Shown in pieces: positions 25,415-26,788 of a stretch of DNA of 39,942 nt (the stretch's first letter is position 1; every line of letters begins with the position of its first letter). The stretch comes from Planctomycetaceae bacterium (GTDB lineage: Bacteria > Planctomycetota > Planctomycetia > Pirellulales > Pirellulaceae). The notes below the pieces were generated by a model, which saw only the letters and a program-made list of their open reading frames with translations, was not told the DNA's origin and did no database searches. Position numbers and translations under genes: made by a program. The stretch spans positions 1 through 39,942 of the forward strand of contig JABHUV010000083.1 in NCBI GenBank assembly GCA_018658605.1, written 5' to 3'.

Positions 25415-26530
25415 TTACATTTGCTTGCCGATGGCGTTGGCAATGATGCGGCAGCGGCCCATAGTGTCTTCGAATTGCTCTGGTGTTAAGGATTGATAAC
25501 CGTCGCTCATTGCTTCTTCGGGATGAGGGTGCATTTCAACGATCAGCGCATCCGCTCCGATGGCTACTGCGGCGACGGCCATATCGGGCACCAAGTATGC
25601 ATGCCCCGTGCCGTGACTGGGATCTATCACGATTGGTAAATGCGTCTTGTCTTTGAGGTAGGTTACTGAGGCCAGCGGTAGTGTAAAGCGAGTGTGTGAT
25701 TCAAACGTGCGAATTCCTCGTTCACACAACATCACTCGTGCGTTACCTTCGTTCATGATGTATTCCGCAGCTAACAGGAACTCATCCATGGTCGCTGACG
25801 CTCCACGTTTAAGCATGATGGCACATTCGGTATTGCCAACTGCTTCTAGCAAACGATAGTTTTGCATATTGCGTGCACCAATCTGTAAAACGTCTGCATA
25901 GGAGGCAACCAAATCTATATCTTCAGTCGCCAAAACTTCCGTCACGACGGCTAGCCCTGTTTCCTCTCGAGCATTCGCTAATATTTTTAGCCCTTCTTCT
26001 TTCATGCCCTGAAAACTGTAGGGGCTTGTACGAGGTTTAAACGCTCCGCCGCGTAAGCCCGTTCCGCCAGCTGCCTTCACAGCCCGAGCCGCTTCCATCA
26101 ACTGCTCTTCAGATTCAACACTACAGGGGCCACCGATCATACCAATGGTGTTACCACCTACAACGAGGCTGCCCGCTGTAATGATAGTCGGTTCCAGTTT
26201 AACTTCTTTACTGGCAACCTTGTATGGTGCGAGAATTGGTAGAATTTCAGCCACACCTGCTCCCGCTGCTAGCGACTCTTTGGTGGTTTCTCGTTTTTCA
26301 CCGACGGCGGCAATCACGGTCCGTTCGGTTCCCTCGATAATATGAGATTTCAACCCTAGAGATTCAACTCGTTGAGCCATTGCGGAGATTTCTTCGGACG
26401 TAGCGCTACTTTTCATTACAACAATCATGCCTTCTACACTTCCCTTGTTAAGGTACTTCGTTACGGGTTTATGCACTCTGACGACCGGAGTTTTAAATTC
26501 TGCCTCAGGCAGTACTTCTGATATAGTCAT
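25415..26530 (-). CDS. aroF: 3-deoxy-7-phosphoheptulonate synthase (DAHP synthase, type I-beta)
   Basis: First enzyme of the shikimate pathway, condensing PEP and erythrose-4-phosphate. It has 371 residues. The N-terminal part, from [14 protein letters not shown], is the ferredoxin-like/ACT-like domain of the B. subtilis and Thermotoga branch. The barrel has [51 protein letters not shown] and [13 protein letters not shown], covering the metal and substrate ligands. ATG 26530 has AAGGAA 11 nt upstream; the alternative ATG 26428, 34 codons later, is the more usual family start. The 5' leader carries an aromatic-rich leader peptide and a terminator (see separate entries), so expression is likely controlled by attenuation. 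Confidence 0.95.
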
Positions 26531-26563: not shown

Positions 26564-26598
26564 AAAAAAGCCCCGATGACTATTTTCATCGGGGCTTT
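26564..26598 (-). terminator. Intrinsic terminator in the aroF leader (attenuator segments 3:4)
   Basis: A perfect 13-bp stem: AAAGCCCCGATGA on the minus strand (26598-26586) pairs with TCATCGGGGCTTT (26579-26567) around a 6-nt loop, directly followed by a run of T (26569-26564 on the minus strand). It is a strong intrinsic terminator oriented toward aroF, with only 33 nt between its U-tract and the aroF ATG. A terminator here would stop all aroF transcripts from upstream, so it makes sense only if it is conditional. Termination of the DUF1501 unit is a less likely use, since that gene ends 282 nt earlier. Confidence 0.9.
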
Positions 26599-26684
26599 AG
26601 GATGTTTTTTTGTTTTTCTGTTAACGATTTGTTAACTTGCAGAATAAACTACGCATTCCTATTAACCCCGCGTTGCCACGGGTA
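26586..26684 (-). promoter_or_regulatory. Transcription attenuator upstream of aroF: pause and antiterminator pairings
   Basis: Three exclusive structures can be drawn on the minus strand. Segment 1 (TACCCG, 26684-26679, the Tyr-Pro codons plus part of Trp) pairs with segment 2 (CGGGGTTA within 26670-26658). Segment 2, CGGGGTTAATAGG, pairs instead with segment 3, CCTAAAGCCCCG (26601-26590): CGGGG with CCCCG, TT with AA, AGG with CCT. Segment 3 is the 5' arm of the terminator (26598-26586). A ribosome stalled on the Phe/Tyr/Trp codons covers segment 1, frees segment 2 for segment 3, and prevents the terminator. A ribosome reaching the stop codon covers segment 2 and lets the terminator form. 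This is the classic trp/pheA logic. The pairings were drawn by eye. Confidence 0.8.
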
Positions 26685-26723
26685 ACTAAAAAAGAAAGCG
26701 AAATTTGCAGTACAGTTGATCAT
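26649..26723 (-). CDS. Aromatic-amino-acid-rich leader peptide of aroF (24 residues)
   Basis: A short ORF, ATG 26723 to TAG 26649. It begins MINCTAN, then F-A-F-F-F-S-Y-P-W, then QRGVNRNA. Four Phe, one Tyr and one Trp fall within nine residues, just before the pairing segments of the attenuator, much like the E. coli pheA leader (FFFAFFF). The enzyme gene behind it makes the common precursor of exactly these amino acids. No Shine-Dalgarno sequence is visible before ATG, which is not rare in this window. Its role would be to report charging of tRNA-Phe, Tyr and Trp, not to make a functional peptide. Confidence 0.82.
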   Translation of the reverse strand: MINCTANFAFFFSYPWQRGVNRNA

Positions 26724-26765: not shown

Positions 26766-26788
26766 ATTATACACTCGGCGGTATTATA
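26766..26788 (-). promoter_or_regulatory. Candidate -10 boxes for the aroF leader transcript
   Basis: Two exact TATAAT hexamers on the minus strand, at 26771-26766 and 26788-26783, lie 40-60 nt upstream of the leader peptide ATG, a suitable place for a promoter driving the attenuator. No good TTGACA -35 match is found at the normal distance, so this is tentative. Confidence 0.35.

What the first reader, a model, noticed from the sequence alone, without database searches (positions are those of the whole stretch)
26564..26723. Ribosome-mediated attenuator with an aromatic leader peptide before DAHP synthase
The aroF leader has every part of a translational attenuator: a 24-codon ORF with F-A-F-F-F-S-Y-P-W, a first segment overlapping the Tyr-Pro-Trp codons, a second segment that can pair either with it or with the 5' arm of the terminator, and a 13-bp terminator with a U-tract 33 nt before the aroF start. 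The architecture matches trp/pheA attenuators of enteric bacteria, but here it guards the shared first step of the aromatic pathway and its peptide combines Phe, Tyr and Trp. I know of no well-described case in Planctomycetota; that novelty is a judgement from memory.
Basis: partly seen in the sequence, partly recalled or inferred. Interest (0 to 1): 0.88.

Follow-up and report, generated by a model that had tools for sequence, protein, structure and literature searches.

The report
Three-aromatic leader-peptide attenuator before DAHP synthase
A short gene packed with phenylalanine, tyrosine and tryptophan codons sits before the first enzyme of aromatic amino-acid synthesis and, judged from many related planctomycete bacteria, probably works as an RNA switch that turns the enzyme on when those amino acids run short.

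Summary
On the minus strand a 24-aa ORF (MINCTANFAFFFSYPWQRGVNRNA, 26723-26649), a 1:2 hairpin, an antiterminator and a 13-bp terminator with a U-run precede a DAHP synthase. With the RNA under a ribosome masked, segment 3 is sequestered 0.11 with no ribosome, 0.88-0.90 for stalls at F8-Y14, 0.48 at W16, 0.00 at the stop. Of 212 de-duplicated upstream regions of DAHP-synthase genes, almost all planctomycete, 114 carry an aromatic-rich leader followed 15-53 nt later by a terminator; 99 of these 114 contain Phe, Tyr and Trp. Antiterminator pairing coevolves: cognate -20.9, permuted -16.8 kcal/mol, 0 of 5000 permutations as low. New: just under half of the ATG leaders (50 of 108) sit at a promoter placed for leaderless mRNA; no aromatic leader was found before trpE or prephenate dehydratase; Leu-rich leaders precede leuA and Ile-rich ones a citramalate-synthase-like gene. 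The mechanism is a known kind, and a Corynebacterium DAHP-synthase attenuator with Phe-Tyr-Phe codons is published. This is a new variant of a known kind. Translation and response to starvation are untested.

The parts
26766..26788 (-). two TATAAT sequences (26788-26783 and 26771-26766), candidate -10 elements of the leader promoter, 59 and 42 nt before the leader ATG
   Evidence: read from the sequence; no good -35 seen and not listed by the promoter scan
26649..26723 (-). leader ORF, 24 aa, MINCTANFAFFFSYPWQRGVNRNA; control codons F8 26702, F10 26696, F11 26693, F12 26690, Y14 26684, W16 26678; no Shine-Dalgarno motif seen
   Evidence: aromatic-rich ORF plus terminator in 114 of 212 upstream regions, window included
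26667..26682 (-). 1:2 hairpin: CCCGUG (26682-26677) / loop GCAA / CGCGGG (26672-26667); an outer stem pairs Phe codons with GGAAUGCGU
   Evidence: 1:2 pairing coevolves weakly across 96 clusters
26657..26670 (-). segment 2, antiterminator 5' side (CGGGGUU..UAGGA), inside the leader ORF
26590..26602 (-). segment 3, antiterminator 3' side, overlapping the terminator 5' arm
26564..26598 (-). intrinsic terminator: 13-bp stem, loop AAAUAG, U-run to 26564
   Evidence: 3:4 covariation in 30 relatives, window not among them
25415..26530 (-). DAHP synthase with N-terminal ferredoxin-like domain; alternative start 26428
   Evidence: Pfam PF00793 and PF18152, NCBIfam TIGR01361 and NF006421 above cut-off

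Best explanation
A ribosome-mediated transcription attenuator of the DAHP-synthase gene that reads the supply of charged Phe, Tyr and Trp tRNA. RNA polymerase makes the leader and a ribosome translates the 24-codon ORF. With aromatic tRNAs charged, the ribosome reaches the stop codon and covers segment 2, the 3:4 terminator forms and transcription ends near 26564. If charged aromatic tRNA is short, the ribosome stalls on the F/Y/W cluster and covers segment 1, segment 2 pairs with the terminator's 5' arm and polymerase reads into aroF. Shown here: the parts, their conservation, coevolution of 2:3 and 3:4, and codons that match the pathway (F/Y/W at DAHP synthase, Leu at leuA, Ile at a citramalate-synthase-like gene). 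Inferred: that the ORF is translated, that stalling occurs, the direction of the response, and that each of the three amino acids counts.
For: 114 of 212 upstream regions have leader plus terminator. 81 of 143 relatives with >=60% identity reach the aromatic threshold against 0 of 143 reverse strands and 5 of 715 shuffles. Leader and terminator co-occur, 89/92 versus 16/51, Fisher p 1.3e-17; in the more distant set 22/22 versus 7/47. In the chosen leaders F/Y/W are 14.8/7.6/5.0% of residues against 5.0/2.9/2.3% from base composition, partly by the way they were chosen; Leu, Ile, Val and Cys, which were not chosen on, fall below expectation, so a T-rich sequence alone does not explain it. 2:3 cognate -20.9 versus permuted -16.84 kcal/mol (sd 0.28), 0/5000; the control pairing with the 3' arm is no better than permuted, 1715/5000. 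In alignment A1, changes on both sides in 5 of 10 antiterminator and 8 of 12 terminator pairs; covariation score above all 500 shuffles for both. Window states 0.11 / 0.88-0.90 / 0.00. Leu-rich leaders plus terminator before leuA in 25 of 28 loci, Ile-rich ones before a citramalate-synthase-like gene in 15 of 20.
Against: No expression data. At equilibrium the complete window leader forms the terminator in all five states tested (0.92-0.96), so switching must rest on co-transcriptional timing. A coarser measure over the whole terminator arm gives the window 0.67 for its best stall, 0.32 with no ribosome, 0.27 at the stop, and 0.18 for the last aromatic codon, below its shuffled control of 0.26. 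Over 114 leaders the no-ribosome state sequesters the arm nearly as well (mean 0.62) as stalling (mean over codons 0.69); for the last codon 0.58 against 0.46 in shuffled controls, above the own control in 84 of 114. A stall at W16 of the window is predicted to give only 0.48. 51 of 143 relatives lacked the pair at the threshold used; 7 of them have a weaker or more distant one, the other 44 showed none in up to 700 nt. The low value at the stop is partly by construction, because RNA under and behind the ribosome was left out.
Confidence: 0.9

Rival explanations
1. The attenuator is real but only one aromatic amino acid (most likely Phe) matters in the cell; the Tyr and Trp codons are passengers, as reported for Tyr in the Corynebacterium AroR leader.
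For: Phe is the commonest control residue. In C. glutamicum the AroR leader holds Phe-Tyr-Phe but Tyr supply does not change transcription (review PMC11802643, passages seen). In the window W16 is poorly placed (0.48).
Against: 99 of 114 leaders hold all three residues, 82 of 96 cluster representatives. Trp codons lie mostly 4-13 codons before segment 2, as Phe codons do, though none at 3 codons where Phe has 23. No other aromatic leader was found at trpE or prephenate dehydratase.
Confidence: 0.3
2. The nascent peptide itself arrests the ribosome or senses a free amino acid (TnaC-like, recalled), rather than codons sensing charged tRNA.
For: The C-terminal part of the peptide (GRGAGG-like) recurs and follows Pro residues in many relatives.
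Against: F, Y and W occur mixed at each offset from segment 2, and the Gly-rich part is explained by segment 2 (CGGGGCCGGAGG), which must pair with the terminator arm. Leaders before leuA and the citramalate-synthase-like gene carry Leu or Ile instead.
Confidence: 0.05
3. A T-box or other ligand-binding riboswitch; the ORF is incidental.
For: A terminator with an alternative antiterminator is also the layout of such elements.
Against: No Rfam family matches the window at gathering score and none at E up to 1 in L001, L022 or L039. The antiterminator 5' side lies in or near the ORF, ending a median 8 nt before the end of the stop codon.
Confidence: 0.02
4. The hairpin is the terminator of the upstream gene (ORF 28173-26881) and the leader ORF is chance.
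For: The upstream ORF lies on the same strand, with 157 nt between its end and the leader ATG.
Against: In 50 of 108 ATG leaders a promoter-like -35 TTG and -10 sit directly before the leader ATG; leader and terminator come and go together; the aromatic ORF is conserved.
Confidence: 0.01

Closest known systems
Corynebacterium glutamicum aroR leader before aroF (DAHP synthase); Neshat et al. 2014, seen only through passages of PMC11802643 and PMC4046766
   Same: Leader peptide with aromatic codons before a DAHP-synthase gene; ribosome-mediated attenuation; responds to Phe.
   Different: Actinobacterium; Phe-Tyr-Phe is named as its aromatic run and Tyr is reported not to matter. Here Phe, Tyr and Trp occur together in 99 of 114 leaders, in another phylum.
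Enteric trpL and pheL attenuators (layout recalled; Trp leader is Rfam RF00513 as cited in PMC4046766)
   Same: Control codons in segment 1, 1:2 / 2:3 / 3:4 alternatives, U-run terminator.
   Different: Those guard end branches (trp operon, pheA) and read one amino acid; this guards the common first step. The window matches no Rfam family.
Leaderless leader peptides of Streptomyces lividans (trpL1, leuL1, ilvL and others; PMC8079986, passages)
   Same: Leader peptide ORF beginning at the transcript 5' end.
   Different: Those are leaders of other pathways in an actinobacterium, by mapped starts. In Planctomycetota the leaderless arrangement is inferred from promoter position at aroF leaders (50 of 108); at leuA and the citramalate-synthase-like gene a -10-like hexamer 3-12 nt before the start was seen in 2 of 25 and 3 of 15. 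The window's own leader is not of this sort.

Membership tests
Ribosome-mediated transcription attenuator (trp/phe type) | Short leader ORF with clustered codons of the pathway's product | tested here: met
Ribosome-mediated transcription attenuator (trp/phe type) | Intrinsic terminator between leader ORF and structural gene | tested here: met
Ribosome-mediated transcription attenuator (trp/phe type) | Antiterminator pairing that excludes the terminator and is freed by stalling | tested here: met
   (by sequence and folding only)
Ribosome-mediated transcription attenuator (trp/phe type) | 1:2 protector hairpin that restores termination without translation | tested here: inconclusive
   seen for the window (0.11 versus 0.88); pairing coevolves (69 of 114 better than non-cognate) but the no-ribosome state is not protective in most relatives
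Ribosome-mediated transcription attenuator (trp/phe type) | Stop codon placed so that the terminating ribosome covers segment 2 | tested here: met
   segment 2 ends a median 8 nt before the end of the stop codon, quartiles -11.75 and -1
Ribosome-mediated transcription attenuator (trp/phe type) | Leader is translated and readthrough responds to amino-acid starvation | not testable with these tools
   needs ribosome profiling, 3'-end mapping or reporters
Rfam amino-acid leader and T-box families | Match to the covariance model at gathering score | tested here: not met
   0 matches in the window
C. glutamicum aroR attenuator | Common descent with aroR | not tested
   no actinobacterial leader was fetched; similarity is of function and layout only

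The most novel reading that the evidence does not exclude
Planctomycetota run entry points of amino-acid synthesis by one family of ribosome-mediated attenuators: Leu codons at leuA, Ile codons at citramalate synthase and, at DAHP synthase, a mixed Phe/Tyr/Trp cluster that acts as an OR gate, so that shortage of any one aromatic opens the whole pathway and no separate attenuator is kept at trpE or pheA. In nearly half of the species sampled the aromatic leader is read from a leaderless mRNA starting at its own AUG.
Probability: 0.55. Interest if true: 0.75.

Novelty: new variant of a known kind. Interest (0 to 1): 0.62.

Why it matters
It would extend classical attenuation to a phylum for which the literature searched held no such report, show one leader integrating three amino acids at the common first step, and show natural codon-swapped versions of one design (aromatic, Leu, Ile). 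Leader translation from a leaderless start raises a testable question about how such mRNAs recruit ribosomes fast enough to keep up with polymerase. It also gives many phylogenetically spread sequences on which models of attenuation can be tested.

Tried and rejected
Rfam at gathering score on the window (0 hits) and at E up to 1 on eight relatives (no attenuator, riboswitch or T-box family). Reading the element as terminator of the upstream gene, riboswitch or arrest peptide: rejected for the reasons given under rivals. trpE (30 loci), prephenate dehydratase (29) and hisG (29, one further at an edge) were searched for leaders: no aromatic leader at any; ORFs rich in the pathway's own amino acid at 3, 5 and 2 loci, not alike between loci. 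As a side control, 2 of 29 leuA loci gave an aromatic ORF at the same threshold. Lower-scoring second DAHP-synthase copies: 20 stretches fetched, 6 gave no usable alignment start, 0 of the remaining 14 had a leader. Model R1 (segment 2 plus terminator) was searched in 30 genomes, some of which supplied its sequences, so they match by construction: in 22 the best hit has E below 1e-5 and by its coordinates lies just upstream of the DAHP-synthase match; the other 8 have weak best hits (E 4e-4 to 0.05), one of them beside DAHP synthase (G358); several weaker hits lie before leuA-like genes; the list of matches was cut.

Rows dropped: not every match (171 of 392 genomes; 202 of 296) was fetched; I took the tool's loci and the best-scoring part. 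Of 234 records, 225 gave a usable upstream region and 212 remained after near duplicates. Identity for short fetched stretches was measured on about 50 residues only, so the 60% line is rough. Searches use 108 of 114 leaders (those with ATG). Alignment A1 holds 30 of 32 leaders chosen by a Gly-rich pattern out of 96 cluster representatives; L022 and L214 were left out and the window is not in it. The leuA count leaves out L321 (28 of 29 loci); the citramalate-synthase-like count uses 20 stretches out of the second hits, at a low threshold (3 Ile in 8), for which Phe in place of Ile gave 1 of 20.

Full report
OBSERVATION. Read on the minus strand, the window holds ATG at 26723, 24 codons (MINCTANFAFFFSYPWQRGVNRNA) and TAG at 26651-26649. 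A terminator of 13 pairs lies at 26598-26567 and its U-run ends at 26564. The stretch 26740-26555 folds at -50.7 kcal/mol against -31.3 for shuffles, z -4.9. Segment 2 (26670-26657, inside the ORF) can pair with CCCGUG of segment 1 or with the terminator's 5' arm (-18.3 kcal/mol). The downstream ORF is a DAHP synthase with a ferredoxin-like N-terminal domain (the class name type I-beta is recalled). PF18152 and NF006421 start at residue 35 of the ORF, and 59 of 80 relatives align only from residue 33-35, so its start may be 26428.

STATES OF THE WINDOW LEADER. I left out the RNA under and behind a ribosome whose A-site codon is given (front edge 12 nt downstream) and folded the transcript up to the terminator loop. 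The share of segment 3 paired upstream is 0.11 with no ribosome, 0.88, 0.88, 0.88, 0.90 and 0.90 with stalls at F8, F10, F11, F12 and Y14, 0.48 at W16 and 0.00 at the stop. This is the classical pattern. The complete leader at equilibrium forms the terminator in all five states tested (0.92-0.96), so the choice must be kinetic. A coarser measure over the whole terminator arm gives the window 0.67 (best stall), 0.32 (none), 0.27 (stop) and 0.18 at the last aromatic codon, not above its shuffled control of 0.26.

RELATIVES. A scan of genome contigs gave 80 loci; searches of 392 phylum-level and 296 order-level genomes matched 171 and 202 genomes at the E-values used, and a best-scoring part was fetched. 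After near duplicates were removed 212 upstream regions remained, 143 with at least 60% identity to the window protein in the aligned part. At a threshold of 6 F/Y/W in 10 residues, 81 of these 143 have a short ORF in the last 400 nt, against 0 of 143 reverse strands and 5 of 715 dinucleotide shuffles; 18 of the 69 others also do. At a threshold of 5 and with a terminator required within 75 nt, 114 of 212 qualify, 92 of them among the 143; the gap from stop codon to terminator is 15-53 nt, median 29. Examples are MTTLRSYYFYFWFFFTLAGRGEEGAM (L022) and MHSLRPATFGFYFYFYSPPGRGAGGGL (L039). Phe occurs in 114, Tyr in 113, Trp in 100 and all three in 99 of 114. F/Y/W exceed the composition-based expectation 3.0-, 2.6- and 2.2-fold, partly because leaders were chosen on them; Leu, Ile, Val and Cys fall below it, Gly, Thr and Asn lie above it. 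Leader and terminator occur together: 89 of 92 against 16 of 51. Named contigs with a leader include Pirellulales (L007), Gemmataceae (L066, L068), Singulisphaera (L048) and Phycisphaerales (L071, L075) (titles, list); two Isosphaeraceae contigs (L055, L057) have a weaker one. Of the 51 relatives without the pair, 7 have a weaker or more distant version and 44 showed none in up to 700 nt. None was listed for the Chloroflexi-named loci L078 and L080 or for L079 (one search list).

COEVOLUTION. For 114 leaders the energy of segment 2 with its own terminator 5' arm averages -20.4 kcal/mol against -16.1 with arms of other species, better in 108; pairing with the 3' arm shows no such preference, better in 63, p 0.45. 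With one representative for each of 96 clusters the values are -20.9 and -16.84 (sd of permuted means 0.28), 0 of 5000 permutations as low; control 1715 of 5000. The 1:2 pairing gives -14.2 against -12.8 (sd 0.25), 0 of 5000, but is better than non-cognate in only 69 of 114. On a MAFFT alignment of 30 leaders the antiterminator has changes on both sides in 5 of 10 pairs, 87.4% of cells paired (29.5-54.6% when slid), covariation score 0.183 against 0.137 in shuffles; the terminator 8 of 12 pairs, 86.2%, 0.268 against 0.172; no shuffle of 500 reached either score. The count of antiterminator pair types was not beyond shuffles (141 of 500 as high).

AGAINST. Across 114 leaders the mean sequestration of the terminator arm is 0.69 when stalled (mean over codons), 0.21 at the stop and 0.62 with no ribosome. 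For the last aromatic codon it is 0.58 against 0.46 with shuffled spacers, above the own control in 84 of 114. Only 26 of 114 show the best stall clearly above (by 0.2) the no-ribosome state (all). So in most relatives the simpler reading of this calculation is: antiterminator by default, terminator when a ribosome reaches the stop codon. The protector hairpin of the window is not general by this measure, though 1:2 pairing does coevolve.

PROMOTER AND START. In 50 of 108 ATG leaders (41 of 94 cluster representatives) a -10-like hexamer, most often CATAAT, ends 6 or 7 nt before the ATG; 4.05 are expected from shuffles. All 50 have TTG 16-18 nt further upstream, 2 at a control spacing. Shine-Dalgarno-like motifs precede 8 of 108 leaders (8.8 in shuffles) and 79 of 108 DAHP-synthase starts (no shuffle was made for the latter). 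This would place the transcript start at the AUG, a leaderless leader mRNA. The window differs: its TATAAT sequences end 59 and 42 nt before the ATG, and it has no Shine-Dalgarno motif that I can see.

OTHER PATHWAYS. In about 30 of the same genomes no aromatic leader was found before trpE (0 of 30), prephenate dehydratase (0 of 29) or hisG (0 of 29). Second DAHP-synthase copies have none (0 of 14); in four genomes checked by coordinates such a copy, 44-50% identical, lies beside the prephenate dehydratase gene. In contrast, leuA has a Leu-rich leader plus terminator in 25 of 28 loci, for example MNQNLLLLQLLLITPGC. A second LeuA-like gene, first met among weak hits of model R1, has an Ile-rich one in 15 of 20, for example MTPCRLINIAIIGIAIPQGERR; Phe in place of Ile gave 1 of 20. 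That the second gene is citramalate synthase is my inference from its sequence, not from a family search. The codons thus follow the pathway, which is the strongest indirect evidence that they are sensors.

LITERATURE. A review states that the AroR leader of C. glutamicum contains Phe-Tyr-Phe, that transcription of the operon with aroF is enhanced under Phe limitation and that Tyr availability has no effect (PMC11802643, passages); PMC4046766 predicted the aroF leader (passages). Neshat et al. 2014 was not read. S. lividans has leaderless leader peptides (PMC8079986, passages). Trp leaders are proposed for Chlamydia trp genes (PMC3937554, passages). PMC4833913 reports a distance peak of short leader genes in Planctomycetes, explained by reinitiation, and does not hold the words aromatic or leaderless (passages). 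Searches for Planctomycetes or Rhodopirellula with leader peptide and attenuation, or attenuator, listed 1, 4, 0 and 1 papers; those whose passages I saw do not report this element, the rest I saw only as listings. Searches on citramalate synthase leaders and on leaderless starts in Planctomycetes listed one paper each, seen as listings. The premature-terminator survey PMC2965389 does not hold the terms planctomyc, Rhodopirellula, aroF, DAHP, aromatic or leuA in its main text. Most subscription journals are outside this library.

VERDICT. The mechanism class is old and a DAHP-synthase example existed; new, as far as these searches reach, are the phylum, the three-aromatic leader, the leaderless start in nearly half of the leaders, and the matching Leu and Ile leaders. 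Response to starvation is untested.

Noticed in passing
L294-L320 and L322, for example L314, L316, L317, L319 upstream of leuA: Leu-rich leader peptide plus terminator before leuA in 25 of 28 planctomycete loci.
   Followed up: partly
L404-L423, also L387, L392, L398, L401, upstream of a LeuA-like gene: Ile-rich leader peptide plus terminator before a citramalate-synthase-like gene in 15 of 20 loci; an apparent Ile attenuator.
   Followed up: partly
L043, L046, L048, L070, L072, within about 350 nt upstream of DAHP synthase: A different recurrent element (in L046: GGTAACCAGAGGTGGCTGC ... GCCGACGGGCTGCCGTCGG .. GCAGCCACAA) lies before a terminator; the aromatic leader is absent in four of these five. 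Rfam gives only sub-threshold sRNA hits over it (CC2171, Ms_IGR-5).
   Followed up: no
G002:C16, G001:C17, G358:C4, G320:C166: A second DAHP synthase (44-50% identical) lies directly beside the prephenate dehydratase gene.
   Followed up: partly
window 26429-26530: The DAHP-synthase ORF has 34 residues before the conserved domain that 59 of 80 relatives do not align to; the start at 26530 may be too far upstream.
   Followed up: partly
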